Origin: Hygrophila difformis
Taxonomy: Eukaryota > Streptophyta > Magnoliopsida > Lamiales > Acanthaceae
Assembly (NCBI GenBank): GCA_030278955.1
Contig: JAOANR010000003.1
Coordinates: 29,589,227 to 29,653,226 of the forward strand
Direction: 5' to 3'
Length of the DNA stretch: 64,000 nt
This document shows positions 13,387 to 38,741 of the stretch, in pieces. Each line of letters opens with the position of its first letter. Position 1 is the first letter of the stretch. The translations under genes were made by a program, and so were the position numbers. Below the pieces are notes generated by a model. The model did not search any database. It worked only from the letters and a program-made list of their open reading frames with translations, and was not told where the DNA came from.

Positions 13387-16300
13387 TGACGACAGTCTTT
13401 TATGACTGTCATTTGCGTCCAATTTAGTGTCTTAATGATGATCTTTTGTTCTTAATTCCATTAGTTTTTAATGAATAATCATGGAAGATTAGAAAAAGAT
13501 GGAAGAAGAACTAAGATTGTGAAGAAGTTGGAATTACACTGAAAATGGCTTGAAATTCTAAGTTTTCATTGCAAGTCTCGCACGCTATGTTTTTATTTGA
13601 ACTTATTCACGCTTTGTCATTCAGCAGGAAGTTAAGCTGGAAAGCAGCGGGAAATGGAAAAAGACATAGCAAGGAAAGAGAAGGAATGGTGCGAGGACTT
13701 ACATTCGAAATCAGGAGAAGATCTAAAGAAAATGTTCAGACGCTGAAGTCCACGCGATGATTGTTTGACATCGCGAGGAAAGAAAGTCTGTGCAAGACAG
13801 AAAGCTTTAGATATTATGGCGAGAAGCTAACTCTTTGGAGAAACTGTGAGACCTCGCCTTGTCAAGAAAGATGATTACATTTCTGACTCTCGCTTTGAAG
13901 GAACTGGACAAAGCGAGAGGAGAGCTATTCTGATGCGAGCGGTTATCATCCAAGGCTGAAGCAGTTACAACGCCCATCTATAAATAGGACCCTTGGGGGA
14001 TCAGCTCAGCAGGCGGGAGATTGAAGAGAATAGCTCAATTTTACTCTCCAGTCCATTTTTTTTAGAATTCAGTAGGTAGGTTAGCTAGGGTTTAATTTTC
14101 ACTGCAATTTACTTTCAGTTCTTCAGATTCGTAATTCAATTTCGCAGTAGATTTTCCTCAAGATAGTTTTCAGTAGATTAGTTTGAGGATATCCTAGAAG
14201 AAGAGTTGCTTTTGGAATGCTTGTTCATCCATTACGACGATCATCATCTAAACTTCCGACTTCTTCGTTCACCTTTGCATTATTCTGACTGCAATCAGAC
14301 TTCCAGGTGTATTCATTTTTTAATTCTTTGTTATTCAAGATACATGAAGAATGATCGGTTATCAAATCGTGCATTTCTTATTTTTCTGATTTCAATTCTC
14401 ATTTCTCAATTCTGTTTCAGAGAAATATAAACATCAATTACAATATTCATTTTTGGAATCTCCATTACATCGATAATTTGATTCTCGAAGATTACAATAC
14501 CTCCATATCTTAAACTCGTAATATGTTCGTTCTAGTTACACAAGAAGTTTGAATATTGTAACCGAGTTAGGTATGAACTGGCAGAATTGTGAATTCGTTC
14601 GATTTTCTGTTGATATTATATCTTGATCTCAAATTTGGAAGAAATCACAGAGATTAATGTTTAGAACTTCAAAAGGTTCCTAGAGACTCTTGCAGTGTTA
14701 ATCATCGCATGATAATCTTTAAGAATTAATAACTCTAAGTTCATGAATTTGGAGGTGAAAGGTTCTGTATTCATTACTTTCTGAACAGAAATCACAGAAG
14801 GTAGTTATGACAGTTATAAAACCTGATCATTTACTTCACATAAGGATAAAGCCAAGCTTCATCTTAAAAGATGATGCGAGGATATATCCAGAGACCTTTG
14901 TTTAAAGAAAGGCTATTCAATACTCTCGCGATGTCACTCTGACAAAGCGAGAAAACCAATCTAAGATAGCAACAGAATTGATACCCATCTTTTTGGGCAT
15001 CAAATACTTACTTTTACTTTTTATACATATATAACCCCTATCTTATAAGTAGGAATTGGATACCTCGCCGCATTCTTACAGAAATTATTGCGAGGCATTT
15101 AGTTCTTTGTATAAATAAAATCTGATGAACATTCTTTGAATATTAACTCCCTCCATGCTGTACAGACATAGCGTGCGGAAAATTTGAATGTTCATAGTTT
15201 GAAACCCAAAGTAGTTACTGCGAGCTATTTTGGACATTTATTTTGCAGAATTATCTCTCAAATTTTTTTCATAGGAAAGTTATTTCCTAATTCTGTCTAG
15301 TTTCCAGCGTATATTTTGGAAACACTCTAGCATTTTGATTAAGAGGACTCAGAACCCTCATCGTTTCTTTATACATATAATACTACCTATACATATAATA
15401 TTTTGGGATATTTCCCAGTCTATGATGAGTAATCTTACTTCATAATTACATACTCATAATTCACATCTGTAATTCATATTACTATTTTCAATAGTACAAT
15501 GAGAAAGATGATGATATAAGTTTTCTCAATCATTATTTACTCAGGTTAATGGAGAACAAACTTGTTCTTTAGTTGGACATTTAGTACCTGTCGTTTAAAA
15601 TATGTTATGGGTAGGAGATTAAAATATTCTTCCTACAATCTACTGATCCTGAGTTAAATCATGGGTATTTGGAATTGTTTACAGAGATTTCTCAAGCTAG
15701 AGCATCTATATGAATCTGGGTGGTCCGGATAAGTCAAGGATTTTGAATAGCAATTTCAGCTTGATATACTTACAGGACTATTACTTCTTACAAATACTTG
15801 AAGGAATTACTCTGAGGATACAAGTCTTATGAAAACATTGGATGATAGATTTAAATACTTGCTTTCTCATTTCTTGTAGAGGACATCCAACATAGGATCA
15901 TAAGACCAATTTGCTTCAGAGTAATAAAAAAACAACTTCAAGTTCAGATAAATATAAGATGGTTTAGAAGTGACCTCGAGTTTTCAAAGGCTTAATCTGA
16001 AGTCCGAAAGAAATAGATTAAGTGACAATTCTAACAGCTTTTGTCACAGAATGAGTCTGACCGATCATCCTGTGATGATAGTATCCTACGATTTCAGTGC
16101 TTAGAATGTCATGACACTGAATCACAAGTACCTGTCTTGGGAAGTGATTTAAGACATGAAGATTTGATTAAGTTGTATAGAGGATTTGTCTATCTCAATG
16201 AACTCTAATTCTGCTTAACCGTAGAAGTATGATATTCTCATCATATTCTAATTTCATTTGATTTGGTCCGTGTTATCTTAAACTCATGAACATAATCACA

Positions 16301-16620
16301 ACATTCAACATTATTTCAATTGTTTTCTTTACTATTGTTTACAGCTTTGTGCATTTACATTTCAGCATTAAGTTTTTAGTAATCATCATTACACCATCCT
16401 TAAACCAAGGGCATAAACAGATTCTAGAACTAATAATCCTATTAAATCACTTCTATCGTGTAACTCTCTAATGAACGATCCCGACAATAAAAATAAATAT
16501 TGCAGCTTGATACCGTGCGCTTTCGGTAGGAAAAATTAGGCAAGCTTTTTAACAGCCCTACAGGATTATAGTGTAAAGGCTGTCGGGGGGCATTGCAGCG
16601 GGTTTTACCTCAAAGCTTCA
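13387..16620 (+). repeat. Athila-like 5' LTR (3234 bp)
   Basis: Near-identical to 35413-38741. It begins with an inverted repeat (GACAGTC...GACTGTC), has a TATA box at 13979-13986, and ends with CCGTGCGCTTTCGG (16513-16526) and AAAGCTTCA. About 97 bases present in the 3' LTR (roughly 37625-37721) are absent here near 15603. The LTR carries the AAAGCGAGA motif in both orientations (13607-13617, 13887-13897, 13909-13919, 14942-14952). Short open frames inside it are shared by both LTRs only because the LTRs are identical; I do not regard them as genes. Confidence 0.9.
13979..13986 (+). promoter_or_regulatory. TATA box of the Athila-like 5' LTR
   Basis: TATAAATA, preceded by a C and followed by GG, is conserved in the 3' LTR at 36005-36012. 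Transcription of the genomic RNA is expected to start about 30 bases downstream (inference). The flanking 100 bases carry the AAAGCGAGA inverted repeat. Confidence 0.65.
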
Positions 16621-16637
16621 TGGCGCCGTTGCCGGGG
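16621..16637 (+). other. Primer binding site, tRNA-Asp type
   Basis: TGGCGCCGTTGCCGGGG begins immediately after the LTR end. This is the sequence known from Athila elements as complementary to the 3' end of tRNA-Asp, where minus-strand cDNA synthesis is primed. It supports both the LTR boundary and the lineage. Confidence 0.88.
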
Positions 16638-16760
16638 AGGGTGTAGCATTATGAATTTTAGAACTGTAGATACTCTTTGGTTTAATTGTAATTATTTACT
16701 TTACACCATAACAAATTCATTAATTCTTTCATTTTGTTCACAGAGAAGTCTCAACAGTTT

Positions 16761-18548
16761 ATGAGCGAAAGAATAACTCGATCTTCAAGGCCACCTTTAC
16801 TTCCTTTTAATTGTGAACTTGAGAGAACAGCAAGGCTGATCAGAGCAAGTGCAAGAAGGAGACAGAGAGATCTTGTAGAAGGGAATCTTTCAACAATAAC
16901 TAGGATGGCTAACAATGGACAAAATGACGGACCTGGAAACTTACCAAATGGACAACCAGACAATCAGCAAAATGTACCACTTCGAGGACATTTTCAAGCA
17001 CCACAGAGAGCTGCTGCACCACAATTCATTCATCAACACTATTTTCCACCAAATTTTGCTAATCCTGCTCCGAATCCTCAAGAAGAACAATATCAACCAT
17101 GGCAACCCAATGTTGATCAGTATTTGGCTGGAACAGATGAAGAGGTTGATATACCACCTGGTATATTAAACTTAGCTTCTTCCAGAGCTTTTTATGGGTT
17201 GAGTGCTGAAGATCCACACTTGCATCTCAAAAAGTTTGTTGAACTGAGTAAGACAGTGAAGAAAGGAAGAGCCTCAAGGGAAACCATTCAACTGGCAATG
17301 TTCCCATTCTCTCCGGATGGTTCTGCAAAAGAATGGTATGATTCATTGAATGCTCAACAGAAGGCTACTTGGCCAGAACTAGTTAGAAATTTATTGCTCA
17401 AGTATTTTCCAGAAAGCAAAGTAGATGAATGGGTAGATAAGATTTCTAGCTTCAAGATGAGAAAAGGAGAATCTCTGAAGGATGCTCGAGACAGATTCTT
17501 TGATATGCTTAAGAGATGTCCGCAACATGGTATCACAGAAAGAAGACTTTTAAAGATCTTTTTCACTGGACTCACTCACACTTGGCAGATGATGATTAAT
17601 GCCACCGGAGGGGAACAATTACTTCAGATGCCACTTGATAGAGCGTGGTCAACAATAGACACCATGACGGCTAGTAGAGCAGTCCTCCAAGACGATGACC
17701 CACCATCTCCTACAAGAAAGAGTCTTGTCATCCATACAGACAAAAATGAAGAGAAATTTGCAGCACTCACTAAACAAATTGCTGAGCTACAGGTAGCTCA
17801 GCAAACAAATCAACAAGCTCAACATCAACAACAACAGCAACCAGTGATGATCCTTCAACCTGCTCCAATGGAACCAGTGTATCAGTGCGGAATTTGCTCA
17901 GGGCCACATCACAATGATCAGTGCCCACAAATCCAGGAAGCACCAAAGCAAGATGAGAGCTGCAACTACACTGGATTCCGGAACAAACACCCGAATCTGA
18001 GCTATGGTAATACTCAGAACGCACAAAATGCACATCTTCTGAACCCACAACAACAAAATCAGCAGCAATTTCGTCCTCCACAACCATTTTATCCACAGCA
18101 ACAAATGTACCCTCAGAGACCTCCTCAACAGATGAACCAACAGAATAGGCCATATGGACAGTTTGCACCAGTCCCTGCAAATTTTCCACTGCAATCTTAT
18201 CCTGTTGTTCAAGACAATTCTTATTCTTTGAAGGTGGAGAATGCTCTGAAGGAGTTTATTGTTAAGCAGACAGAGACGAATAACCAACTGCAGGCTTCAA
18301 TCAAGAATGTTGAAAATTCAGTAACAGAGATGGCCAAATTACTACAGCATAGAGAAAAAGGAAAATTACCAGGTTCTTCTGAAACAAATCCACAATGTAA
18401 GGCAGTTACATTGAGGGGAGGAAAAGAGGTTGTTGATCCTGAATTTGAAAAGAAACGAGAGAGGTTGCTGCAGCAGAAAAAGTTCAAGGATGTTCAGACA
18501 ATGGAAGAAGATGATCAGCTTGAACAAAGACAGATACAAATAGGATAA
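16761..18548 (+). CDS. gag: Gag polyprotein of the Athila-like element
   Basis: Capsid and nucleocapsid precursor. Start set at ATG 16761 ([12 protein letters not shown]); the open frame extends 27 bases further upstream without an ATG. The retrotransposon gag domain is visible at about residues 180-285 ([35 protein letters not shown]). A glutamine-rich stretch follows near residues 345-365, then one CCHC-like knuckle ([13 protein letters not shown]). The tail is Q/P-rich. It ends at TAA 18546-18548, and pol opens at once in the +1 frame without an ATG. Athila gag-pol is usually one frame, so either a frameshift has separated them or pol is made by recoding. Confidence 0.88.
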
Positions 18549-18552
18549 GGGT

Positions 18553-21500
18553 TTGGAAAAGAATGTCTCAGGATACTCTTTTCCAAAGGAAAAAGAGGGA
18601 GGTAATGATAATCCTAACTCTACAGGTAATAAAAAGGATTCATTGGATGAACACATGCCCAGGATATCATATCCTGGGAGACTCAAAAATGATCTTCAAG
18701 AAATTAAATTTAAGAAATTTCTTGAAAAGATTAAGGCCATTGAAATATCAATCCCTTTGGTTGAATTAATTGCTGAAATGCCCACTTACGCTAAGTTTCT
18801 GAAAGAATTGATTTCAGGGAAACGAAGTGCAGGAGAGCAGCAAATGGTGGTCTTAAATCAGAATTGTAGCCTGGTTCTTCAACAAAGGATTCCTCCAAAG
18901 CTTGAAGATCCAGGGAGTTTTACTTTACCTCTGATTATCAACTGTAAAGAAGCTGGGCGAGGGCTCTGTGACTTAGGAAGCAGCATCAATGTAATGCCAC
19001 TTGCTATGGCGAGACGTTTGGACTTGGGAAAGATGAGGCCAGTTAATATGACTCTCTTCTTTGCTGACCAATCGAGCACCAGACCAGAACGGATCATTGA
19101 AGATGTTTTAGTAAAGACAGGAGGCCTTTGTTTTCCAGCTGACTTTGTCATTCTTGATATCGATGAAAATGTCAGGATTCCTATTATACTAGGAAGGCCT
19201 TTCCTGGTGACTGCAGGAGCTATGATTGATGCAAAGAATGGCATAGTAAAACTTCATGTTGATGACCAGGAAGTTACTTTCGACATGATGAAGATGTCAA
19301 CATATCCTTTCAATGCTTTTGAAACCAATGTAGCGGGAAAGGAACTAGATTCTAGCACTATGGAGGGGGGAAATCTTTTTGATTACTATAATCTCTTTAC
19401 CACTGATGTAATTGAGAACAATCTCACCCCACTCACAAATGCTGAAGATGCTACTTTTGCTTACTTGTGTGCTGTCAGATTCGCTGATCCTGAGACTGGT
19501 GAAATCAAGGATGGATCAGAAAGTGAGGATATGTCATCTTCAGAACAATCTGAGGATGACATTGATAAAACAGATCTTTCTAAAGAAGGATCTGATTTAA
19601 AGATGGAAGTGCAAACTCGAAGCAAATTAATTCCATCAATAGAAAACCCACCTGAGCTTGAACTTAAAGTATTACCAGAACATCTTAAGTATGCCTTTCT
19701 GGCAGACAAAAAGAAGCTTCTGGTAATAATTTCATCCAAATTAAGTGAAGAACAAGAACAAGCTCTAGTAGGTACTCTTAAAAATCATATTCAAGCAATT
19801 GCCTGGACTATAGCAGATATCAAAGGCATCAGTCCACACATTTGTATGCATAGGATTCTGATGGAGGATGAATACAAACCATCCAGACAACCACAAAGGA
19901 GGCTAAATCCACCAATGCAGGAAGTTGTCAAGAAGGAGGTAATCAAGGTACTGGATGCAGGTATAATCTATCCTATCTCTAATAGTAAATGGGTAAGTCC
20001 AACACAAGTTGTACCCAAAAAGGGTGGGATTTGCATTGTTACTAATGAACATGGTGATGAAGTAGCAACAAGACCAGTAACTGGTTGGAGAGTTTGCATT
20101 GATTATAGAAAATTAAACACTGCCACAAGAAAAGATCATTTTCCTTTACCTTTCATTGATCAAATGTTAGAAAGACTGTCAGGTAAACCATATTGCAGCT
20201 TCTTGGATGGTTATTCTGGTTATTATCAAATAGTTATTGCTAGTGAAGATCATGAGAAAACAACTTTTACTTGCCCATATGGAACATTTGCTTATAGAAG
20301 AATGCCTTTTGGAATATGTAATGCTCCTGCTACTTTTCAAAGATGCATGATGAGTATTTTCTCTGATTTTATTGAAAAATGCATTGAGGTGTTTATGGAT
20401 GATTTTACTGTTCATGGAACTGACTTTGAAGATTCTTTAAAAAATTTGTCAAAAATTTTGCAGAGATGTGAGGACACTAACCTAGTTCTTAACTGGGAAA
20501 AGTGTCATTTCATGGTTCAGGAAGGAATTGTCCTAGGACACAAAGTATCTAGAGCAGGAATAGAAGTAGATAAGGCTAAGGTTTCTGTGATAGCAAATCT
20601 ACCGCCACCCAAAACAATTAAGGCAGTAAGGAGTTTTCTTGGTCATGCTGGTTTTTATAGAAGGTTTATTAAGGACTTTTCTAAAATAGCAAGACCTTTA
20701 TGTAATCTTCTTCATAAGGATGTGACATTTAGCTTTGATGAAGATTGCTTGACTGCTTTTAAGACCTTGAAGGAGAAACTAATTACTGCACCTATAGTTC
20801 AGTCTCCTGATTGGAGTTTACCTTTTGAACTTATGTGTGATGGAAGTGAGAATACAGTAGGAGCAGTTTTGGGGCAACATAAAGAAGGCAAACATCATGT
20901 TATCTATTATGCTATCCATACTCTTAATGATACTCAGATAAACTACACTACTACAGAGAAGGAAATGTATGCTGTAGTTTTTGCTTTTGACAAGTTCAGA
21001 CAGTATCTTATTGGAGCTCAAACAATAGTTTACACAGATCACACTGCATTAAGATATCTCTTCTCAAAGCAAGAAGCCAAACCGAGGCTGATAAGATGGG
21101 TTTTACTGTTACAAGAGTTTGACATTATTATCAAAGATAGAAAAGGAAAAGATAATGGAGTAGCAGATCATCTTTCTAGATTGGAGGAGAAAACAGAGAA
21201 AGATGAAGTTGTAAATGATAAATTTCCAGATGAACAATTGTATGCATTGCAGTTGCATCAATTTGATTGTCCTTGGTTTTCAGATTTTGCTAATTATCTA
21301 GCTTGTAAGATTGTCCCAAAGTTTAAAGACTCTCATCAGAAGTCAAGATTTTTCAGAGAAATCCAGAAATACTATTGGGATGATCCCTTTTTATTCAAAT
21401 TTTGTTCTGATCAGGTTATTAGGCGTTGTGTTCATGAAAAGGAAGGTTTTCAAATTGTTAGGAAGTGTCATGAGAATCCTCTAGGAGGCCATCATGGTCC

Positions 21501-22548
21501 TGCTAGAACTGCTAGAAAAGTTCTAGACTGTGGCTTTTACTGGCCGACTATCTTTTTGGATTCCCAGAAACTTATAAAAATGTGTGACAGATGCCAAAGA
21601 TTGGGAAACATTTCAATGAGAGAAGAAATGCCTCAAAAAGGAATTTTAGAAGTAGAGATATTTGATGTGTGGGGAATTGATTTTATGGGACCTTTTCCCC
21701 CATCATTTGGTAATCATTACATTCTAGTAGCTGTTGATTATGTTTCAAAATGGGTAGAAGCAGTAGCCTTACCCAATAATGAAGCTAAACAAATTACTAA
21801 ATTTCTGCAAAAGAATATTTTTACCAGATTTGGAGCCCCTCGTGCCATTATTTCTGATGGAGGATCTCACTTTGTAAATAAACTCTTTGAGAAGTTACTG
21901 AAACAGTATGGTGTTCATCATAAAGTTGGATCACCATATCATCCTCAGACAAGTGGACAGGTGGAGGTATCTAATAAGGAAATCAAGCATATTTTACAAG
22001 CTTCTGTGAATATTACAAGAAAAGACTGGTCAAAGAAGCTGGATGATGCTTTATGGGCTTACAGAACTGCTTTTAAGACTCCCATAGGAATGTCTCCCTA
22101 CAGATTAGTTTTTGGAAAAGCATGCCACCTTCCAGTTGAGCTAGAACATAGAGCATACTGGGCCATTAAAATGCTCAACATGGATTTCCAGTCAGGACAA
22201 GACAAGAGGAAGTTTGATCTGTCTAAGTTGGAAGAGATGAGACTGGAAGCATATGAAAGCAACAAAATTTATAAAGATCGAACCAAGAAAATTCGTGATT
22301 CAAAAATTAAACATAAGGAATTTTCTGTTGGTCAATTGGTTTTGCTTTATAATTCTCGTTTGAAACTATTTCCAGGTAAGCTCAGATCAAGGTGGACAGG
22401 ACCATTCCCCATTGTAGCTGTTCATGACAATGGAGCAGTCACAATTATGCTCAGTGAAGGAGAAAAGACTGTAAATGGACACAGACTAAAGGAGTATATT
22501 GGTCAACAAGATTTAAATATCCAAACTGAATATTTGGATAACCCCTAG
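18553..22548 (+). CDS. pol: Pol polyprotein of the Athila-like element (protease, RT, RNase H, integrase)
   Basis: 1331 codons without interruption. The aspartic protease has [12 protein letters not shown] (about residue 142) and ends near ILGRPFL. Reverse transcriptase shows [35 protein letters not shown] and the catalytic VFMDDF. RNase H shows [13 protein letters not shown] and DHTALRYL. Integrase has an HHCC zinc site ([10 protein letters not shown]...CDRCQRLG) and a DDE core ([31 protein letters not shown]). There is no chromodomain. The frame has no ATG at its start (first codon after the gag stop is TTG), so it depends on gag translation or a shifted frame. All catalytic residues I could check are present. 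Confidence 0.92.
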
Positions 22549-22564: not shown

Positions 22565-22616
22565 AAAAAAAAGGGGGGGGGGGGGGTGGATACTACCCAG
22601 GTTAACTGGGTAGTAT
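22565..22616 (+). promoter_or_regulatory. A8G14 polypurine run followed by a perfect hairpin after pol
   Basis: Seventeen bases after the pol stop there is a run of eight A and fourteen G (22565-22586), then TGG and a perfect inverted repeat: ATACTACCCAG (22590-22600), loop GTTAA, CTGGGTAGTAT (22606-22616). A purine tract followed by TG is what a plus-strand primer site next to an LTR looks like, so this may mark an ancestral 3' end of the coding region; the hairpin may act on RNA. Both roles are inference. Confidence 0.55.
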
Positions 22617-23281
22617 TTCCCTTTTTCTTTTGATATATTTTCCTTCTCTAATTCTTTTATTCTTTATTTTCAGGAATTCGAGAAATTAAGCTGTGATGGA
22701 ATGAAGAAGGATGAGATACGGATCTTCAACCAGGTTTTTGAGTATTAAGTGTTTGGAAATAAAGTATGAATAGATTCTGAGGCCACGCTCTTGTTAACTT
22801 TGACAAAGTGTGATTTTAGAAGAACTATATTCACTCACGCTTTGTAAAAGTTATAAAGCGAGGTGATCAGTTCAAATTCTCATTTTATGAAATCTGATAA
22901 GTTGTTAAATAATAAGAGTTCTATGTCTACGGTTTGTCGAAATACAAAGCGTGACCATGTTCTCTGAAAACTGTACAAGGATCTTTCATTGCTTTGTAGT
23001 TTACAAAGCGAGAGACGGTTGTTATAACCACGCGATGACAATTGACAAAGCGAGAGCCTGGGAATACTGAACGGATATATTTTCAAACTTCTCAAAGACC
23101 AGAATACCTTCTTAGACTCTTCTTCTTCTCTTACACCAACCATCACACGTCGTTTCAACCGCTTGTAATTATGACAGAATTTAGTTTTTCTGCTATAAAA
23201 TCTAGTCGAATCCTTCTCTCCTTTCATCTCAAACATTTCCACATTAGAACAATCATCCTGCAACTTTTATCAGAAATCAGA
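22617..23281 (+). promoter_or_regulatory. Spacer between pol and the F-box cassette, rich in AAAGCGAGA motifs; promoter-like end
   Basis: No gene seen. The motif ACAAAGCGAGA or its complement occurs repeatedly (22835-22845, 22853-22862, 22944-22954, 23003-23013, 23045-23055), the same motif as in the LTRs. A TATAAAA at 23194-23200 lies 82 bases before the ATG of the first F-box gene and could be its promoter. An open frame continues upstream of that ATG to 23042 but shows no protein-like features. Confidence 0.5.
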
Positions 23282-24022
23282 ATGGCCGCAGCAGCTCCCA
23301 ATGCTAGAACCTCCATTCTAGACATTCCTGACGAAATTTTAGGAGACATTCTTTCAAGGTTGGGAAAAGAAGAGATGAAGGATGTAGCCAGAGCAGCCCC
23401 AACTTGCAAGAAGTTCGCTAGAGCAAGTAAGGCGCCTGTAGTATGGAGGAGGGCTAATGTAGAGAGGCGAATGACTGCGGAGAGGACGCTTGATGCTCAT
23501 TACGTTCGAGTACTGCAAAGATGCAGAGGGGCAGGGAACTTCATGCTCAAACTTAAACCTGCACTCTCGGTCTTCTGCAACACAGGGCTCAAGGAAGCTG
23601 CGTTTGAAATCCTCAAGCCTGGAATTGAAGACAATCATCACCCTTCAATCTTCATCAAGGCCTTCATTCTTCTAAGCTTAGAGAGCCTTAGAGAGATTGA
23701 TTAAGGATTGTATCTTCTTGGATCAATCCTTAAAGAGGAAGAACACATTCACAAGATCAAGGAGAAGATCAGCAAGTTGTTTATTGAAAGTGAAGAAGAG
23801 CCTAATCCCTTTCGGGGACAAGGGCATCGCTATTACTGTGATTACATAGCGCCACACAGTAGGGACTTAGTTAGGGAACCCCCACACTATAATTATGGTG
23901 CCACAAACATTGATTGTTTGTGTTGTGAGCTTACTAGTTTGATTAGAAGATTAAGAGAAGATTTCAATGAATATGTAATTGAATCTGAGTCAGAATTAGA
24001 AACTGATTCAGATTCAAATTAA
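23282..24022 (+). pseudogene. F-box gene 1, intronless, one in-frame stop
   Basis: Starts MAAAAPNART, aligning with the spliced start of F-box gene 2 (MAENNP + NARN), so it lacks precisely the intron that genes 2 and 3 keep. The F-box (ILDIPDEILGDILSRLG, residues about 11-50) is followed by a helical region (AGNFMLKLKPAL, AFEILKPGIED) and a C-terminal cysteine/histidine motif (NPFRGQ, then YYCDY, then CLCC). The N-terminal F-box would bind SKP1 in an SCF ubiquitin ligase; the rest would choose the target (family knowledge; it resembles plant At2g35280-like F-box proteins). TAA at 23702-23704 cuts the frame, which continues afterwards in register to 24022. The tail is acidic. Confidence 0.72.
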
Positions 24023-25711: not shown

Positions 25712-25882
25712 CTAGTGATGAAACTGGAAGCTCCTCATTAAACTAAAAATGTTATCAAAGGAGTCTGGATCAGGGGAAACTCATATCACAGCACTTCACT
25801 ATGAGATTCTTGAGAAAACCCCTTAAGATTGGTGTTTGATCATCAATTGCAAAATGTTAAATGAGGTTTCTAAAACATTTTT
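25712..25882 (+). pseudogene. F-box relic similar to F-box gene 5
   Basis: Matches the first part of gene 5 (28490-28660) at DNA level: GAAACTGGAAGCTC, TCTGGATCAGGGGAAACTCA, ATGAGATTCTTG and AATTGCAAAATGTTAAA have counterparts there in the same order. Several stops and indels destroy the frame and no further homology is seen. It sits about 170 bases after the gene 2 stop, just as gene 5 sits about 160 bases after gene 4, which points to duplication of a two-gene block. Confidence 0.6.
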
Positions 25883-27574: not shown

Positions 27575-28328
27575 AAATGTCGAAATCCCTCAACTCTTGG
27601 AAACTCAAATACTTGATTTACCAACTGAGTTACTGGGAGACATTCTGTCAAGATTAGGAATGGAGAGCATAAAGGCACTTTTTAGAGCATCTGAAACATC
27701 TAAGCGATTCTTCTCAGCAAGCAGATCATCATTAGCCCTAAAGAGAGCTAATTTAGAGACCTGTGCTAATTGGAGAGGAGATGTTTACCCAAGTAATCAG
27801 GTCAAATTCATTAAAGAATGTTAGGATGCAGGCAATTATATGTTTAATATTGAGTCTGCACTGATAGCTTTTGTGGATGATAAAAATGAAGAAAAAGCTT
27901 ATGAAATCTTAAAGCCCGGATTAGATGATAAACACAAACCCACTGTTTTCATAAGATCTCTTCTATTGCTTTCCAAACAAGACCCACAACTGGATGAGGA
28001 AGGAATTCAATTGATTAAATCTGTAACCCAGGATCCTTTCGATCTACTCTTTCTAAAAATGAGTGTTCTGCACTGGCTTCTTTATGGTGATAAGTTCCCA
28101 AATCCATTCCTTGATCAAGAGGAAAGGAATTTTTGTAAGAATCACTCCCTTCAAGAGCGACAGCAACTACCCTTCAATGAAAGGATGGAGTGTGTTCCAT
28201 GTGAACTGTTTGACTATGTCAAGCAATACAGAAGAGCAAGTGGAGAACTGGGCATTTTATTTGAATGGGAGCAATGGAACAATGGAGAAGAAGAGCAGAA
28301 TGAAGAAGAATTGCTAGAATTAGACTAG
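27575..28328 (+). pseudogene. F-box gene 4, lacking exon 1, one in-frame stop
   Basis: Begins at an acceptor TTTTCAG followed by AAATGTCG, the same context and phase as exon 2 of gene 2 (CAG then AAATGCTAGG). No ATG-bearing first exon of the MA.NNP type is found between gene 3 and here. The F-box ILDLPTELLGDILSRLG and the rest align closely with gene 2 (MFNIESALIAFV, ILKPGLDDKHKPT, NPFLDQEERNFCKNH...CVPC). TAG at 27822-27824 replaces the Gln codon seen in gene 2. Either a decayed duplicate, or an exon reached by splicing from an upstream first exon. The tail is strongly acidic. Confidence 0.72.
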
Positions 28329-28489: not shown

Positions 28490-29161
28490 CTGTGAAATTG
28501 GAAGCTCATCAAAGCAACCAAGGACTTCAATAAAGAAATCTGGATCGGGGGAAACTCAGATCACAGATCTTCCTTATGAGATTCTTGGAAATATATTATC
28601 GAGATTGGCATTTGACCACCTTGAGACTGTCTTTAACTGTAAATTAGTCTGCAAAGAGCTGGAAAAGGCTACTCATCATCCTTTAGTCTTGAAAATAGCT
28701 TCTCTTGAAGATTTTTCTGCATGGGGATGGGGGACCTTTGAAGAAACACAAAGTGTTTTCCTTGAAAGCTGTAAAAATGCAGGAAATTGGATGTGCCAGT
28801 TACAAGAGGCACTACGTTTGTTCGTAAAAGATAAGAATGAACAAGCAGCATTTAAGCTCTTAAAACCTGCAATTACTGATAATCACCCCCATCCATTTAT
28901 GTAAAAGCTCTTATGCTTTTAAGTAAGGATGAAGTTGAAGAACAAGAGAAGGGAATTTGGCTCTTTGCTACTCTGTGTAAGAATAGACGAAGGCTCAAGG
29001 ATCTTCGGCTTCAAGTCAGAGGGTGGCTATCAAGTTATGAGGAATTTATCTCACCTTTTCAAGGACAACCTAAGAAGAGACTTTGCAATCTTAGGAGCTA
29101 TTATGATAACAATCACGGCCTTCAAGGAACACTTATGGAGTCACCTCAATTTACTGTATGA
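28490..29161 (+). pseudogene. F-box gene 5, lacking exon 1, one frameshift
   Basis: Starts after a pyrimidine-rich acceptor ending CTCAG at 28489, again in phase 2. F-box ITDLPYEILGNILSRLA, then CKLVCKELEKATHHP, AGNWMCQLQEALRLFV and FKLLKPAITDN. Near 28900 one base is missing, shifting frame 0 to frame 2; the second part (VKALMLLSKDE, then SPFQGQPKKRLCNL) continues to 29161. The C-terminal cysteine motif appears curtailed. No own first exon was found. It is the parent type of the relic at 25712. Confidence 0.68.
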
Positions 29162-29390
29162 GGTGCTTAGTCTCTGAGCATTGTAATTTGTTCCTCAGAT
29201 TTGGAATTGAGGCAAAGACACCTCCTCATTTGTAATTGATAGGTTGAATGTCATAAGAAACATCATGCTTTGTAGTTCCATATTTTAGCAAGGATCTGAT
29301 GAATTTTATATTTTGTTTTTGATTGATGATGTTTTGATTGTAAGTTCTCTGTTATTTTCTGCAATAAAGTAGATTTAGTCAGCATTGAAA

Positions 29391-29535
29391 TCTTCACATT
29401 TAGAGCAAATCTCTAAATGTGAGTATGGTGATATCATGAAAAGAATGATGAATATAAAAGGAAAATCTGGTATTATGTTTCCTTTTATCATCTGCACATT
29501 TAGAGTCAAGCTCTAAATGTGAGTATGGTGACACT
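29391..29535 (+). repeat. Twin hairpins, exactly 100 bp apart, ending in a polypurine-tract-like sequence
   Basis: Two copies of CACATTTAGAG, 5-nt loop, CTCTAAATGTG occur at 29395-29421 and 29495-29521. Each is followed by AGTATGGTGA. The same string, TCTAAATGTGAGGATGGTGA, forms the junction with the 3' LTR at about 35395-35414. So the sequence next to the real 3' LTR occurs twice more inside the element, at the boundary between the F-box cassette and the env-position ORF. This suggests that modules were joined at such sites; see findings. Confidence 0.75.
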
Positions 29536-29578
29536 GATTAACCAGTTTGTTCTTATTGCTTTCTTAAGGATTCATAAG

Positions 29579-32500
29579 ATGACCTATGAAGAACTTCAAG
29601 CTCGAGGCATAGAATCGGATAAGAAAGAGAAATCATTCTTGACGAAGATAAAAACAACAAAAATGGTGGAAACTATTCGGAAAAGTGGTGGATGGACAGG
29701 AATGCAAATTTCACCTCCAGACTTTTATATCAATCCATTCATGATCCAACATATACCAGACAAGGAAAAGGAATCATTGATGATTGATTTAGAAGCAGCA
29801 TTCTGGGATAAGAATAAATTTTGGGATGACCAAATGATACTTCTCATCAATGACAGGCATTTGCCTAATGAAATCAGACTCAAAAGACTTTTGGAAAGGG
29901 AAAGGAAGTGCATGGCTGAGTGGAATCAGGAATGCTACAGAATTATCAATCCAAAAGATCAAATAGGGCTGGAGTTGGATTACTTTGATCCTCAACCACT
30001 ACCTAAATATGTGAAACGACTCACCAAACATTGCTGCAAGCTTCATGAAATCCGGAATGCTAGAGTCTATGATGCTCAGCAGGCACTCCCTGCATACATG
30101 CCTCCAACATTTTTGAACAAGAAGGGACCCGTTGAACAGAATTTCTTGACAAATTTGGCCCTGGATAGGATTATTGATGCTCGGATCAACTTGAGACATG
30201 ACCTCGAGCCTCATTTCAAGAAAGCTAAACAAGGCAAGATGGTATGGAAAGATGTCCTTAGAACCATTCAGGAAGCTAGGAATAGCTGGATCAGGCATAT
30301 GAATGAGTGGTCTAAGGGGCTAAATCTAAGGAGAAGGATTCTTAAACCAGGGTTGACAAGGAAACCTGATGAGGAATTTCCTCTAGAGGAATTTGCTGAT
30401 TTGATACCAGAACAGCAAGCACGGGTTAAGGATGCAGAGGAGAGAGAAGCTGAGAGATCAGGGAAGAACAGGAAACAGAGATCAGATGCAAAACAGACAC
30501 CACAAAATATAGTAAGGAACATTTTCAGAGAATCTGTTGTTAATGAAGGACTGGAACCGATAGCGAATTTCAAAAAAAGTTTCAGCCCCATCAATAACAC
30601 AAGCAGATGCAGATCTTCTCATTACAGACAGACCCAACAAGATCATGAAGAGATTACCTCCAACTCTCCAACAGGAAGTTCATGGATATGTTCAGGAGAG
30701 GAAGAAAGAAATTCATTGAAAAGTATGTCAAATATGATGCTATGTGCAGAGAAAATGCATACAAGGAGCATAGACCTTATACTGATCAAACACAAGGAAG
30801 AATTCAGCAGGTAATTATTGATGATTGGGATGCATGGAATGAGAAATATCTGAACAGAAAGGGAATGAATGTCATGCTGAAAGGATTGGGCAAAAATTTT
30901 TATGTTAAGAAGCATGATTCAGATGAAGACAGCACAGATGATGAGCAAAGAATTGAGAAAATGAGAGTAGTAGATGAAGTCACAACTATTGTAGGAGAAA
31001 GGAATGAAGAAAATGATGAACTCCATCCGATTCTGCAAGAAAGTATGGATTATTATTATGCAAACAAACAAAAGGCAGACCGTGAATGGGAGGAATTCAT
31101 GAAAACCCAAGATAAGAAAGGTAAAAAGAAAGTATCCACCAGAAAGAGAAAGTCACACAATCTCAGTTCAAGCACTTCAGAGGAAGTACCAACAGCTAAG
31201 AAAAGGACTGGGAGAAAGGTGGAGACAACCAGGTCTGAGAAAACTAGCCGAATTCCAAAGAAGAGGAAGAATGAAGATGAGCTAGCAACCAAAGAAATTC
31301 TGGATTTGACAAAGGATTTAATGGATGAAGATGTTGAGATTCTACAATCAGCTCAAGAAAAGAAAGAAGTCGTTACCTACAAAAGAAGAGGGAAGCTACC
31401 TTCTGACCAGAAGGAGACTAACCCTGAAGAACTTAAGCAGCAAGGGTCTTCTCTTGAGAATGTAGAACAATTGGAAATCACTCCTGAGAAAGAAAAGCAA
31501 CAAGAAAAAGAACCTGAAAAACCTGTTAAGAAGTTCAGAATAAAAATGAAGGCCAGGAAGCCTAAGTATGTGGTACATGATACCAGCTCTGAGGAAGAAA
31601 AAGTCAAACCAACTTTAGGGATAGTTCCCTATACAGAAAGGTTGGAACTCACTACTTGTAGTAATTTGGAAGTGGGAGATATAGATCCGGAAGACTGGAG
31701 AGCATGTATCGATGAACATCAACCTGATGAACAAGGGTCAACTAAACCGATCACTGATCTTCAACAGGCTCAGATTGTTGAAAGAGATAATATAGAAGAA
31801 CAGAATGAAGGTCAGCAAGCTCAGGTTAACGAAGATCTTATTCAGTCAGATTGATATACAAAGATTTTCAGAAAAAGAAACTAAGCAAGATTCACCACCA
31901 GAACAAGCTGCAGATGAGCAAGAATTTCTAGAACAAGTGGAGAAATCAGTGGTGGACATATTTCAAGATCAGTCACTTGAAGATTTACAAACTTTTGAAG
32001 ATATGAACTTGCATGGAACTACAGTAGGAAACATGACTTATTCTTTGGAAGGACTGATCAAAAAGTTCAGAAAATTGGCCAGAGAAGGAGGGAATGCACA
32101 CACTTCAGTAGAACAAGCAAGTGAATATGCAGCTAAACTTGAGTCAGAATTGGAGAAAGTTCAACAACAAATAAATTCTGACCAAATAGTGGAACCATCT
32201 CCATTAGCTATCCAAGCTTATGAAGAAGAAGTGCAGAGAAATGAAATTCAAGAAGACCAACAGAGAAAGTATTTTGTGGAAGACACTGTTAGTCAATATC
32301 TTGGAACAAAGACAAATGCTGAAAAACAAATGAATCAATGGCTTCTGCCATCTCAAGTCAGGGATGAAGTAACTCAGAGAGCGATTGCAAGGATGAATGA
32401 TCCTGAATGGATTGCAGAACAGAAGAAGAAAGCAGAAGAATATTTTGGAACCAAAGGATTTGAAGATTCAGAACCTACTGCTATCCCTCTTCTACTAAAC

Positions 32501-34362
32501 GAACCTGTACAGGAAGATCCCACAGAGATCTTAAATCAGCATAGCTTGGAAGTTACTGAGAAGGTAGACACCAGCACATCATTGATACATGATTCATGCA
32601 TAGGCAATCCACAACATGATGACACTGATAGAGATCAAGAAGAAAATCCAGAGCCTGACCATGAACAAAACCCAGAACAAGTTCAGGAAGAAAATGTAGA
32701 ACCTGTTCAAGAAGGAGGCCAAACAGAAGAAGAAGGAAATGAGAATGCTGGGAATGAGCAGGAAGAAGCACAAGAGTCCGAGGGAAATGAATCAGATACA
32801 TCTGAAGGATCTTCCCCAGGAAAAGAAATTCCAGAATTGTTACCTTTGAGTTATTGGGGGAAGAATAGTCCGAAGGTGAGGTTATCAATCCCTGATAGCA
32901 TTGAAAAAAGAACTGAATTCACAGAAGAGGAAATCAAGGTTAAGTTTAATGGAAGAAAGGAGACATTGGAGAACTACCTGGGAATGTCCAAAATGATTGT
33001 TCCGGACAAAGGATTTCATCCCAAGTGGCTGGATCACAAATGTATCAGCTACTGGAGGAGAATCAATGAATGGGACGTTTTCACGAGACATAACAACAAA
33101 TGTGGTTATGTGGAGTTGATAGAGAGTTCTATGCTAACTTTGATGTTGAGGCAGAAACAACATGGATTAGAGGAAAAACAGTGCAAGTCACTGTGGAAAC
33201 TCTAAATGATTTGATACAGGCACCTTTGTTAGAACAGCCAGAAGTTAAGTCTGAGGTCCTCTTGAGGAAGAAAACTCAAGGAAATAAGCTCACCAATGCT
33301 AGAAAAATGGCATTAGGATTCTGTTCAACACATAGAAGAACTGAGCAGAATAAGATTCCATTAAAGAATTTGAAGCCTGAGTATCTGCCAACACTTGATT
33401 TCTATTATTCAAAGCTCAGACCCACCACAAATTTTCAAGGACCTTCAGCTGGAACTTTTGAGGGATTTGCATTGTTATGGTCAGGAAGGAAGTGCAGTGC
33501 TGCACACCATGTTCTCAATGTCATTAAGTCAAGAGTTGGAGAAGACGCAGCATTAGCCTATCCAAATTTAATTAGAAGACTATGTGAGAAACAAGGAGTG
33601 TCATTCACACCATTCTTACCAGAAATCATAAAGATAGACCCTCCTATTCCATTACCAGTAGACACTTTGAGGGGAGAATTGGTTTACCAAATGCCAGATT
33701 TAGAGGAACAAACTTCCAAGGGATCAGGATCAAAGGTGCCATCTCCTAAGACAAAAAGGGTCAAGTTCCCTTCAAAATCAAGATCATCTCAGTCAAGAGC
33801 CACAGTGAAAAGGACAAAGACTGCAACAACATCTCCTGCATTGAATCCCATTCCAGAAGATGAGGAGTTTGAGAACACTTCTACACCATCTCATCCTTTG
33901 AGACAACCAATGAGGAACACAGTGTCTGTGGATGAATCTAAGAATATGAGTACCTCAATTCAAAGTTTTGCACAGTCCATGGAGATGTTAGTGAAAACCA
34001 TGTCAGAAGACAAGCACGTTCAAAGAGAAATGGAGCAAAAGAGGATCGAACTTGAGCATGTCAGGATTCAAACTGAAGAAAAACTCAGGAAAGAGGAGAT
34101 GGAGAGGCAAGAAAAGATAAGGAAGGAAGAATGGGATAGACAGGAGAGAATGAGAAGAGAAGAAATGGAAAGATTTGAAAGGCTAAGAAAAGAAGAGCTT
34201 GAAGAGAGAAGACAGGAACGAGAAAGGGATATGGAGCTGAGGAGACAGGAGCAGCAAAATAGTACGAGATTGGTGAACATCCTTGCCAACCTAGTCTCGG
34301 ATCTAAAGAAGTCTCCATCCATGCCACCCAAAGACCCAGACAATGATGCAGGACCATCCTGA
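29579..34362 (+). pseudogene. Long env-position ORF of the Athila-like element, broken by about four frameshifts
   Basis: Starts MTYEELQARG at 29579 and keeps protein-like character to TGA at 34362, but frame changes are needed near 30572 (A run), near 30705 (AGGAAGAAAG), near 31840 and near 33121, where one base is lost. The first 350 residues match nothing I recognise. The middle is rich in Lys, Glu and Ser with nuclear-localisation-like clusters (KKVSTRKRK). Around 32840-33720 lies a segment ending in REFYANFDVE, WIRGKTVQVTVETLNDL, which resembles the domain called putative plant transposon protein that is common in Athila-related ORFs. The C-terminus (34000-34270) is a heptad-like coiled coil of Glu, Arg and Met. 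I see no signal peptide or transmembrane segment, so an envelope role is not supported. Confidence 0.6.
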
Positions 34363-35392: not shown

Positions 35393-35412
35393 GTTTCTAA
35401 ATGTGAGGATGG
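35393..35412 (+). other. Polypurine tract region before the 3' LTR
   Basis: TCTAAATGTGAGGATGG immediately precedes the LTR start TGATGACAG. Purine-rich GTGAGGATGG is the likely plus-strand primer. It is weakly purine-rich compared with the A8G14 run after pol. Confidence 0.5.
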
Positions 35413-38400
35413 TGATGACAGTCTTTTATGACTGTCATTTGCGTCCAATTTAGTGTCTTAATGATGATCTTTTGTTCTTAATTCCATTAGTTTTTAATGA
35501 ATAATCATGGAAGATTAGAAAAAGTTGGAAGAAGAACTAAGATTGTGAAGAAGTTGGAATTACACTGAAAATGGCTTGAAATTCTAAGTTTTCATTGCAA
35601 GTCTCGCACGCTATGTTTTTATTTGAACTGATTCACGCTTTGTCATTCAGCAGGAAGTTAAGCTGGAAAGCAGCGGGAAATGGAAAAAGACATATCGAGG
35701 AAAGAGAAGGAATGGTGCGAGGACTTACATTCGAAATCAGGAGAAGATCTAAAGAAAATGTTCAGACGCTGAAGTCCACGCGATGATTGTTTGACATCGC
35801 GAGGAAAGAAAGTCTGTGCAAGACAGAAAGCTTTAGATATTATGGCGAGAAGCAAACTCTTTGGAGAAACTGTAAGACCTCGCCTTGTCAAGAAAGATGA
35901 TTACATTTCTGACTCTCGCTTTGAAGGAACTGGACAAAGCGAGAGGAGAGCTATTCTGATGCGAGCGGTTATCATCCAAGGCTGAAGCAGTTACAACGCC
36001 CATCTATAAATAGGACCCTTGGGGGATCAGCTCAGCAGGCGGGAGATTGAAGAGAATAGCTCAATTTTACTCTCCAGTCCATTTTTTTTAGAATTCAGTA
36101 GGTAGGTTAGCTAGGGTTTAATTTTCACTGCAATTTACTTTCAGTTCTTCAGATTCGTAATTCAATTTCGCAGTAGATTTTCCTCAAGATAGTTTTCAGT
36201 AGATTAGTTTGAGGATACCCTGGAAGAAGAGTTGCTTTTGGAATGCTTGTTCATCCATTACGACGATCATCATCTAAACTTTCGACTTCTTCGTTCACCT
36301 TTGCATTATTCTGACTGCAATCAGACTTCCAGGTGTATTCGTTTTTAATTCTTTGTTATTCAAGATACATGAAGAATGATCGGTTATCAAATCGTGCATT
36401 TCTTATTTTTCTGATTTCAATTCTCATTTCTCAATTCTGTTTCAGAGAAATATAAACCTCAATTACAATGTTCATTTTTGGAATCTCCATCACATCGATA
36501 ATTTGATTCTCGAAGATTACAATACCTCCATATCTTAAACTCGTAATATGTTCGTTCTAGTTACACAAGAAGTTTGAATATTGTAACCGAGTTAGGTATG
36601 AACTGGCAGAATTGTGAATTCGTTCGATTTTCTGTTGATATTATATCTTGATCTCGAATTTGGAAGAAATCACAGAGATTAATGTTAGAACTTCAAAAGG
36701 TTCCTAGAGACTCTTGCAGTGTTAATCATCGCATGATAATCTTTAAGAATTAATAACTCTAAGTTCATGAATTTGGAGGTGAAAGGTTCTGTATTCATTA
36801 CTTTCTGAACAGAAATCACAGAAGGTAGTTATGACAGTTATAAAACCTGATCATTTACTTCACATAAGGATAAAGCCAAGCTTCATCTTAAAAGATGATG
36901 CGATGATATATCCAGAGACCTTTGTTTAAAGAAAGGCTATTTAATACTCTCGCGATGTCATTCTGACAAAGCGAGAAAACCAATCTAAGATAGCAACAGA
37001 ATTGACACCCATCTTTTAGGGCATCAAATACTTACTTTTACTTTTTATACATATATAACCGCTATCTTATAAGTAGGAATTGGATACCTCGCCGCATTCT
37101 TACAGAAATTATTGCGAGGCATTTAGTTCTTTGTATAAATAAAATCTGAGGAACATTCTTTGAATATTAACTCCCTCCACGCTGTACAGACATAGCGTGC
37201 GGAAAATTTGAATGTTCATAGTTTGAAACCCAAAGTAGTTACTGCGAGCTATTTTGGACATTTATTTTGCAGAATTATCTCTCAAATCTTTTTCATAGGA
37301 AAGTTATTTCCTAATTCTGTCTAGTTTCCAGCGTATATTTTGGAAACACCCTAGCATTTTGATTAAGAGGACTCAGAACCCTCATCGTTTCTTTATACAT
37401 ATAATACTACCTATACATATAATATTTTGGGATATTTCCCAGTCTATGATGAGTAATCTTACTTCATAATTACATACTCATAATTCACATCTGTAATTCA
37501 TATTACTATTTTCAATAGTACAATGAGAAAGATGATGATATAAGTTTTCTCAATCATTATTTACTCAGGTTAATGGAGAACAAACTTGTTCTTTAGTTGG
37601 ACATTTAGTACCTGTCGTTTAAAAGGGAAAGATGTTTCAAAAATCATCTTTTGTTTTAATAATTAGTAGGGTTTTAGGAAGATTAATTTCCAGGGTTCAT
37701 AACTTTATAGTTTCTACTATATGCTATGGGTAGGAGATTAAAATATTCTTCCTACAATCTATTGATCCTGAGTTAAATCATGGGTATTTGGAATTGTTTA
37801 CAGAGATTTCTCAAGCTAGAGCATCTATATGAATCTGGGTGGTCCGGATAAGTCAAGGATTTTGAATAGCAATTTCATCTTGATGTACTTACAGGACTAT
37901 TACTTCTTACAAATACTTGAAGGAATTACTCTGAGGATACAAGTCTTATGAAAACATTGGATGATAGATTTAAATACTTGCTTTCTCATTTCTTGTAGAG
38001 GACATCCAACATAGGATCATAAGACCAATTTGATTCAGAGTAATAAAAAAAAACAACTTCAAGTTCAGATAAATATAAGATGGTTTAGAAGTGACCTCGA
38101 GTTTTCAAAGGCTTAATCTGAAGTCCGAAAGAAATAGATTAAGTGACAATTCTAAAAGCTTTTGTCACAGAATGAGTCTGACCGATCATCCTGTGATGAT
38201 AGTATCCTACGATTTTAGTGCTTAGAATGTCATGACACTGAATCACATGTACCTGTCTTGGGAAGTGATTTAAGACATGAAGATTTGATTAAGTTGTATA
38301 GAGGATTTGTCTATCTCAATGAACTCTAATTCTGCTTAACCGTAGAAGTATGATATTCTCATCATATTCTAATTTCATTTGATTTGGTCCGTGTTATCTT

Positions 38401-38741
38401 AAACTCATGAACATAATCACAACATTCAACATTATTTCAATTGTTTTCTTTACTATTGTTTACAGCTTTGTGCATTTACATTTCAGCATTAAGTTTTTAG
38501 TAATCATCATTACACCATCCTTAAACCAAGGGCATAAACAGATTCTAGAACTAATAATCCTATTAAATCACTTCTATCGTGTAATTCTCTAATGAACGAT
38601 CCCGACAATAAAAATAAATATTGCAGCTTGATACCGTGTGCTTTCGGTAGGAAAAATTAGGCAAGCTTTTTAACAGCCCTATAGGATTATAGTGTAAAGG
38701 CTGTCGGGGGGCATTGCAGCTGGTTTTACCTCAAAGCTTCA
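35413..38741 (+). repeat. Athila-like 3' LTR (3329 bp)
   Basis: Same ends and content as the 5' LTR, including the TATA box at 36005-36012 and the AAAGCGAGA inverted repeat near 35913-35945. It keeps about 97 bases (around 37625-37721) that the 5' LTR has lost. One change in the U5 motif is seen (CCGTGTGCTTTCGG here, CCGTGCGCTTTCGG in the 5' LTR), consistent with methylated-CpG decay. Confidence 0.9.

What the first reader, a model, noticed from the sequence alone, without database searches (positions are those of the whole stretch)
13387..38741. A young 25-kb Athila-like retrotransposon carries a cassette of F-box genes between pol and the env-position ORF
Seen: matching LTRs, TSD CCATA, Athila-type PBS, open gag and pol, then five F-box genes plus a relic (23282-29161), all in sense, then a long ORF. 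The F-box proteins share a C-terminal NPF.GQ ... C ... CxxC signature. Known: Athila elements often have an extra ORF after pol, but I know of no described lineage carrying a family of SCF F-box adaptors. Inference: the element captured a host F-box locus; an F-box protein could redirect host ubiquitination against silencing factors, as some plant viruses do. That would be an accessory-gene system in a plant retroelement.
Basis: partly seen in the sequence, partly recalled or inferred. Interest (0 to 1): 0.87.

Follow-up and report, generated by a model that had tools for sequence, protein, structure and literature searches.

The report
Jumping gene carrying five F-box genes
A family of plant jumping genes carries, in copy after copy, the same five genes related to the host's own protein-disposal adaptors, and these genes bear the mark of natural selection, likely because they turn the host's disposal machinery to the jumping gene's advantage.

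Summary
The window holds an Athila-like LTR element (13387-38741; LTRs differ at 37 of 3,237 aligned columns; TSD CCATA) with five F-box genes between pol and the 3' ORF. Of 11 LTR-probed copies in the same genome (window included) whose post-pol region I read, 10 carry the cassette at the same place; the 40 best DNA matches all span the pol/cassette junction. Of six siblings whose ends I read, four have perfect, different TSDs. Changes shared between copies show purifying selection in all five genes, with no shared stop. A second subfamily (84-87% alike) keeps the five genes in order. The proteins are F-box plus a plant TPR-like domain (PF23310), as in a host gene, with an NPF-GQ-Cys tail that this host gene lacks. 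Genes 2 and 3 have a 17-nt leader exon; genes 4 and 5 have conserved acceptors in the same phase and no start codon ahead of the F-box, so a shared leader is predicted. I take them for standing accessory genes, predicted SCF adaptors; targets are untested. In this copy only genes 2 and 3 are intact. Ten open-licence searches showed no such lineage in print.

The parts
13382..13386 (.). target site duplication CCATA, left
13387..16620 (+). 5' LTR
   Evidence: two aligned blocks, 98.8 and 98.6% to the 3' LTR; 37 mismatches in 3,237 columns
16621..16637 (+). primer binding site TGGCGCCGTTGCCGGGG (tRNA-Asp type, recalled)
   Evidence: sequence read
16692..18548 (+). gag open frame (stop to stop)
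   Evidence: PF03732 1.7e-14
18544..22548 (+). pol open frame: RT, RNase H, integrase
22565..22617 (+). left edge of cassette: A/G-run followed by a palindrome (imperfect in siblings); the G-run and TGGATACTACCC follow pol in the six siblings shown
   Evidence: junction spanned by the 40 scored DNA matches, window included
23282..24022 (+). F-box gene 1, no intron; in-frame stop at 23702-23704 in this copy (no in-frame stop counted in 7 siblings)
24423..24439 (+). leader exon of F-box gene 2 (17 nt, donor GTAAG)
   Evidence: splicing predicted
24809..25541 (+). F-box gene 2, main exon, uninterrupted; F-box plus TPR_27 (PF23310)
25719..25817 (+). relic of a gene-5-like exon start
   Evidence: 77% to 28493-28591
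26408..26424 (+). leader exon of F-box gene 3 (17 nt, donor GTAAG), predicted to be shared with genes 4 and 5
   Evidence: splicing predicted
26655..27375 (+). F-box gene 3, main exon, uninterrupted
27575..28328 (+). F-box gene 4, acceptor but no in-frame start codon ahead of the F-box; in-frame stop at 27822-27824 in this copy
28490..29235 (+). F-box gene 5, acceptor but no in-frame start codon ahead of the F-box; frame broken in this copy
   Evidence: far end set by comparison
29395..29532 (+). right edge of cassette: two hairpin-forming repeats, each running into a copy (1 and 2 mismatches) of the 20-nt motif that spans the PPT/3' LTR border
   Evidence: 3 matches, 0.01 expected; first hairpin, z -3.75
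29504..34362 (+). env-position reading frames, four overlapping pieces; weak Transposase_32 match in the last
35397..35416 (+). polypurine/LTR border motif CTAAATGTGAGGATGG|TGAT
35413..38741 (+). 3' LTR
38742..38746 (.). target site duplication CCATA, right

Best explanation
This is a multi-copy Athila-like LTR retrotransposon family that carries a five-gene F-box cassette between pol and the 3' ORF under purifying selection, and its proteins are predicted to work as SCF ubiquitin-ligase adaptors that likely redirect host protein degradation in the element's favour. Shown by sequence: the cassette travels with the element, keeps its order in two subfamilies, and its reading frames are kept by selection on the replicating lineage. 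Inferred: the genes descend from a host F-box/TPR_27 gene; the F-box end would bind SKP1 and the TPR-like plus Cys tail would pick targets, five paralogues meaning several targets or a target that keeps changing. Most likely targets, by analogy only, are silencing proteins. Predicted expression: genes 2 and 3 each splice a 17-nt leader exon to their main exon, and genes 4 and 5, which lack a start codon ahead of the F-box, would use the leader of gene 3 as alternative last exons; the genomic RNA must then largely stay unspliced, because the introns survive in all copies that cover them.
For: Same place and order in siblings: 10 of 11 LTR-probed copies with the post-pol region in hand, window included; two more in a second subfamily 84-87% alike; the 40 scored DNA matches of the junction probe all span it. 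Independent insertions: TSDs CCATA, GATAC, TACGC, GAAAT, GATAG, plus one 4-of-5 pair. Selection: pN/pS 0.29, 0.12, 0.27, 0.18, 0.15 for genes 1-5 (gene 5: first part) against 0.11 for the end of pol; changes shared by two or more copies, relocated at random with the mutation spectrum kept, have too many synonymous ones in every gene (4, 0, 0, 0, 0 of 2,000 shuffles reach the observed value) and no stop against 7.7 expected over the five genes. Gene 2 in 28 copies: 113 synonymous against 50.3 expected; F-box, TPR and tail all constrained. Splice sites: leader donors in every copy that covers them, acceptors with one loss, also in the second subfamily. Domains: PF12937/PF00646 and PF23310. Abundance: gene 2 has 150 scored matches of 86-100%, 126 without a stop by my count, from 6,142 first-look candidates.
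Against: No transcript, protein or binding data. Solved-structure search gave nothing and the model is poor (pLDDT 57.8; no Foldseek match at E<=0.001). Gene 2's F-box score is just under Pfam's cut-offs (23.8 against 24.3; 19.8 against 20.5); the F-box half of gene 4 was not scanned. In this copy three of five genes are broken. Single-copy changes in gene 3 look neutral (ratio 0.98), as decay after insertion would, but it means protection is not seen at single loci. The gene-2 set was mostly chosen by protein similarity (21 of 28), and the 40 scored matches are the highest-scoring ones of 1,079 candidates, so copies without the cassette could lie below them. One LTR-probed copy (L011) lacks the cassette, though it is a chimera.
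Confidence: 0.6

Rival explanations
1. The cassette is selected, but not as SCF adaptors for host targets: the proteins would act inside the element's own cycle (for example turning over gag or pol, or controlling RNA export), with the F-box binding SKP1 for another purpose or not at all.
For: Selection about as strong as on pol in gene 2 fits any needed function; for a polerovirus, SKP1 binding by an F-box-like suppressor is reported to stabilise the viral protein (PMC6593998, title and abstract start seen).
Against: Five diverged paralogues (23-51% identity) with a constrained F-box and tail are more like a target-recruiting set than one structural part.
Confidence: 0.22
2. Passenger DNA: a host F-box locus was caught and is carried along without use, looking intact because the element is young.
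For: Captured gene pieces are known in plant LTR elements (PMC7264820, passages seen); in this copy three of the five genes are broken.
Against: Shared changes show purifying selection with no stops in all five genes; the cassette persists in two subfamilies 13-16% apart.
Confidence: 0.04
3. The cassette entered an Athila ancestor once as another transposon's load (Helitron or Pack-MULE) or by template switching at polypurine tracts, and only later became useful. This is a rival about origin, not about present function.
For: Right edge holds two near copies of the element's own PPT/LTR-border motif; left edge has a purine run plus palindrome; main exons lack the introns that appear to split the F-box region in the one host gene read, and gene 1 has no intron.
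Against: I did not search the edges systematically for another transposon's ends, and saw none; no empty relative was found to define the exact insertion (the 40 scored matches are all filled).
Confidence: 0.12
4. Assembly artefact or local gene cluster mistaken for element content.
For: None.
Against: Same order on many contigs with different flanks and TSDs.
Confidence: 0.01

Closest known systems
Athila/Calypso lineage of plant Ty3/gypsy elements with a 3' additional ORF
   Same: Gene order, long LTRs, PBS type (recalled), ORF after pol; a sunflower Athila 3' ORF has partial Transposase_32 similarity (PMC11728184, passages)
   Different: None of the passages seen names an F-box; here five F-box genes sit before the 3' ORF
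Phalaenopsis 25-kb Gypsy elements with an AlkB-like m6A demethylase ORF (PMC9289625; section 12 and passages seen)
   Same: Giant plant Gypsy element with a host-like gene kept through several subfamilies; in-vitro activity shown there
   Different: One domain against five paralogous adaptors; their screen of 121 angiosperm genomes reports 15 extra domains, and the word F-box does not occur in the main text held; supplement not seen
LTR-associated F-box retrogene of Thlaspi arvense (PMC8764390, passages)
   Same: An F-box family gene classed as an 'LTR-gene'
   Different: One gene named, tandemly duplicated in the host; no statement in the passages of a conserved place in a retroelement family
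Viral F-box proteins: polerovirus P0 and crinivirus p22 (PMC6593998, PMC6784205; abstract starts)
   Same: Parasite-encoded F-box-like protein that interacts with host SKP1 and suppresses silencing
   Different: F-box-like motifs; here full F-box plus TPR_27 proteins, five per element; no function tested
Plant F-box/TPR_27 (PF23310) host genes; host F-box protein FBW2 regulates AGO1 (PMC2914764, abstract start)
   Same: F-box followed by the same TPR-like domain (host gene L049)
   Different: L049 reads as multi-exon and lacks the NPF-GQ-C tail; FBW2's domain class was not compared
Nematode F-box genes that captured a Tc1/Mariner domain (PMC12062965, passages)
   Same: F-box genes and mobile elements meet
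   Different: Reverse direction: host genes took a transposon domain

Membership tests
Ty3/gypsy LTR retrotransposon | gag then RT-RNase H-integrase order, LTRs with TG...CA, 5-bp TSD, PBS and PPT | tested here: met
   no protease family was listed
Athila lineage | PBS complementary to tRNA-Asp directly after the 5' LTR | tested here: inconclusive
   PBS at 16621; tRNA identity recalled, no tRNA in the window
Athila lineage | 3' ORF with ATHILA/Transposase_32 domain | tested here: inconclusive
   PF20167 42.2 bits, cut-off 45
Athila lineage | RT places with Athila in a tree | not tested
   no reference RT sequences fetched
F-box protein family | F-box domain over Pfam's cut-off | tested here: met
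   PF12937: gene 1 34.6, gene 3 27.8, gene 5 24.6 against 24.3; gene 2 23.8, just under; PF00646 over its cut-off in genes 1, 3 and 5; F-box half of gene 4 not scanned, seen in alignment only
F-box protein family | binds SKP1 in an SCF complex | not testable with these tools
   needs binding assay
Plant F-box/TPR_27 class | PF23310 domain after the F-box | tested here: met
   gene 2 28.5 against 27; gene 5 26.2 and others lower; the 150 scored genome matches are over the cut-off, those checked being gene 5
LTR element with a conserved additional ORF | ORF present at the same place in most copies | tested here: met
   10 of 11 LTR-probed copies; 40 of 40 scored junction matches
Occasional transduced host gene | captured gene confined to one or a few copies | tested here: not met
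Viral F-box silencing suppressor | suppresses RNA silencing | not testable with these tools
   needs assay

The most novel reading that the evidence does not exclude
A plant retroelement lineage owns a standing arsenal of five SCF adaptors, expressed in part from one leader exon spliced to alternative adaptor exons, and uses them to destroy host restriction or silencing factors: the retroelement counterpart of viral accessory proteins that hijack ubiquitin ligases. With well over a hundred largely open copies of gene 2 alone, it would be one of the largest F-box gene sets in its host.
Probability: 0.35. Interest if true: 0.92.

Novelty: new variant of a known kind. Interest (0 to 1): 0.82.

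Why it matters
Plant LTR elements often have extra ORFs of unknown use. Here the extra genes have a recognisable biochemical class (SCF adaptors), come as a family of five, and carry clear signs of selection, so the old question of what accessory genes do for a plant retroelement becomes directly testable by finding their SKP1 partner and targets. It would also warn that a large share of 'F-box genes' in such genomes may be element genes.

Tried and rejected
Passenger DNA: rejected by the shared-change test. Assembly artefact: rejected by many flanks and TSDs. 'L011 shows a second natural 3' module with an antisense F-box': first taken seriously, then rejected, because its junctions are confined to one region: 39 of 40 scored hits of L011:3200-4200 start at base 375, and 38 of 40 scored hits of L011:1200-1900 start at base 263-271; the two full ones lie on contig C11, 21 kb apart. 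Protein database searches found no relatives (none of 99 and 5,236 candidates scored; I suspect few plants are held). PDB by sequence: none. Structure model too poor to use. A tree of 11 F-box proteins is too shallow to root the capture. The codon table for pol was in the wrong frame and is replaced. The leader-exon pattern was one base too long and found none; one search is the right one. Loci L015, L027, L029 and L032 held gag/pol pieces without the post-pol region of this family, and twelve further flank stretches gave no match; they are not in the 11.
Full report
What is there. The window holds a complete LTR element at 13387-38741 with TSD CCATA on both sides. The two LTRs differ at 37 of 3,237 aligned columns (1.1%) plus one ~95-bp indel; at a recalled plant rate of 1.3e-8 per site per year that is roughly 0.4 million years. 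It lies inside a presumed LTR of another young element (12798-13387 plus 38742-40719 against 45695-48255, 97-98%). gag and pol are open. Between pol and the 3' reading frames lie five F-box genes and one relic, all in sense.

Anatomy of the cassette. Gene 1 (23282-24022) has no intron. Genes 2 and 3 each start with a 17-nt exon (24423-24439, 26408-26424) followed by GTAAG and an intron, then a long exon with the F-box and a TPR-like domain. Genes 4 and 5 begin with a splice acceptor in the same phase; their frames have no start codon ahead of the F-box, the ATGs upstream are in other frames or soon stopped, and only two leaders of this pattern exist per copy (other forms of leader are not excluded). 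Leaders and donors are present in every copy that covers them (window and up to nine siblings; one search adds L047 and L048), acceptors likewise except one lost in gene 4 of L014. I predict that the gene-3 leader serves genes 3, 4 and 5 as alternative last exons; this is untested. In this copy genes 1 and 4 hold an in-frame stop and gene 5 is frame-broken. Siblings without these interruptions exist, and among the fetched copies there is at least one with all five frames open.

Siblings. An LTR probe gave 40 scored places from 1,301 first-look candidates. Besides the window I read 16 neighbourhoods: six presumed LTR pairs (12 of the 40 places) and ten singles on both sides. Twelve of the twenty single-side stretches gave no match and four held only gag/pol pieces. 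Eleven copies, window included, had the post-pol region in hand: window, L009, L010, L011, L012, L013, L014, L019, L024, L026, L033. Ten carry the cassette. The window, L009, L010, L012, L014 and L033 show all five genes in order (gene 5 cut by the edge in L009); L013, L019 and L026 are cut by the edge of the stretch; L024 lacks most of gene 2. L011 has the same pol but other DNA after it, and proved to be a local chimera. Both element ends were sought for six siblings: L010 GATAC, L012 TACGC, L013 GAAAT, L014 GATAG are perfect and different; L009 matches at 4 of 5; for L011 the presumed 3' LTR is followed by a PBS and so is not its own. A junction probe gave 40 scored matches, window included, all across pol and cassette, from 1,079 candidates; these are the best-scoring ones, so the list favours filled copies. 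A domain search led to a second subfamily, L047 and L048, 84-87% alike in aligned DNA, with the same five genes in the same order. Gene 2 has 150 scored matches of 86-100% identity from 6,142 candidates, 126 without a stop by my count; of the first 82 PF23310 places, 23 have a listed gene-2 match 3.3-3.9 kb upstream on the same strand (both lists are truncated).

Selection. Pairwise pN/pS over the siblings is 0.29, 0.12, 0.27, 0.18 and 0.15 for genes 1 to 5 (8, 7, 9, 9, 9 copies; gene 5: first part), 0.11 for the end of pol (4 copies, L011 among them) and 0.27 for the first 3' frame (5 copies). Pairs are not independent, so I also counted each change once and relocated changes at random while keeping the mutation spectrum. 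For changes shared by two or more copies, synonymous observed against expected is 19/11.6, 24/9.5, 28/15.8, 23/11.0 and 12/4.0; 4, 0, 0, 0 and 0 of 2,000 shuffles reach this (pol end 10/3.3, 0 of 2,000; first 3' frame 18/11.1, 22 of 2,000). No shared stop was seen in the five genes against 7.7 expected in sum. Changes found in one copy only are less constrained for genes 2 to 5, and neutral for gene 3 (ratio 0.98, 1,089 of 2,000), as expected if selection acts on the replicating lineage and decay follows insertion; gene 1 is alike in both classes (0.48 and 0.44). With 28 copies of gene 2 (21 found through protein or domain searches, so not an unbiased set) shared changes are 113 synonymous against 50.3, and 0 stops against 7.7. 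F-box, TPR and tail regions are all constrained, ratios 0.26, 0.18 and 0.27, 27 copies.

What the proteins are. Pfam gives F-box-like/F-box and TPR_27, gene 2's F-box falling just under the cut-offs. The five element proteins are 23-51% identical to one another, so they parted long before the present copies. They share NPF-GQ or a close variant, then Cys, then a CxxC-like tail. A host gene of the same domain class, L049, appears to have its F-box region split by introns (my reading of its frames) and another tail, and is 16-23% identical. Its last exon finds nothing else above 35% in the genome (75 matches of 150 scored, 256 candidates), while the element genes have thousands of first-look candidates. 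So the class is a host class and the element clade is old; capture from the host is inferred.

Edges. The left edge is a run of A and G followed by TGGATACTACCCAGGTTAACTG, kept in the six siblings shown. The right edge has two hairpin-forming repeats (the first folds with an 11-bp stem, z -3.75); each runs into a near copy of the 20-nt motif that spans the PPT/3' LTR border (3 matches in the window, 0.01 expected), and both were found in the eight other copies that cover the stretch. This may mark how modules were joined, or serve as internal priming sites; neither is tested.

How it likely works. F-box proteins are known as substrate adaptors of SCF ligases (established knowledge). The element's F-box is constrained together with its TPR and tail, so the simplest reading is adaptor function with five target specificities. 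Precedent: crinivirus p22 and polerovirus P0 interact with SKP1 and suppress silencing (PMC6784205, PMC6593998), host FBW2 controls AGO1 (PMC2914764); for these three I saw only the search listing with abstract starts. The target here is a guess. Introns kept in sense in the copies read would require that genomic RNA is packed largely unspliced.

Literature. Ten searches of the open-licence library listed no paper whose title or abstract start describes a plant retroelement lineage with F-box genes; most listed papers were not opened, and subscription papers, preprints and supplements were not seen. Passages read: PMC7264820, PMC9289625 (also section 12), PMC11963269, PMC11728184, PMC3852528, PMC13317346, PMC12062965, PMC8764390, PMC13359793, PMC12888819. 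Nearest print: one F-box 'LTR-gene' in Thlaspi arvense. A sunflower repeat library lists 10 F-box sequences among repeats, a possible earlier sighting that was read there as a domain effect.

Verdict. The finding stands and is strengthened: a multi-copy, selected, five-gene F-box cassette in an Athila-like lineage. New variant of a known kind (plant LTR elements with additional ORFs).

Noticed in passing
L011:2856-3599 (-) and genome-wide: A second, distinct F-box/TPR_27 repeat family (34% identical to gene 2, sharing F-GQEER-YC): 151 matches, 150 candidates scored of 5,961, mostly 67-100% identical, most with one TAG inside; it repeats together with its 1.4-kb flank. Its carrier was not identified.
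   Followed up: partly
L011 (C11:12418000-12427999) and C11:12440583-12442936: A chimera: cassette-family pol, then a reversed piece of the second F-box family, then the Transposase_32 ORF of another family with many open copies; junctions found only in this region.
   Followed up: yes
29413-29432, 29513-29532, 35397-35416: Two internal near copies of the PPT/3' LTR border motif, each after a hairpin-forming repeat, just before the 3' ORF; also in the eight other copies that cover this stretch, second subfamily included.
   Followed up: partly
G000, PF23310 hits: Dozens of matches share the same score (50.8 bits), most with an open frame of about 260 aa (gene 5 where checked), suggesting a very recent burst of one subfamily.
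   Followed up: no
12798-13387, 38742-48255: The element interrupts a presumed LTR of another young LTR element (repeat identity 97-98%).
   Followed up: no
10946-11148 / 11948-12150: Inverted repeat, 203-nt arms, 91% complementary, 799 nt apart.
   Followed up: no
57333-59046: Cluster of TTCGAATT-rich short repeats in both orientations.
   Followed up: no
G000 contigs C1-C15: The 14 contigs among C1-C15 whose length was printed (not C7) are 46-84 Mb and hold most of the 915-Mb assembly, which would suit n = 15; the species was not identified.
   Followed up: no
G000:C10:48300233-48449735: Five nearly equal weak matches (25-26%) to the host F-box/TPR_27 exon in 150 kb, perhaps a host tandem array.
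   Followed up: no
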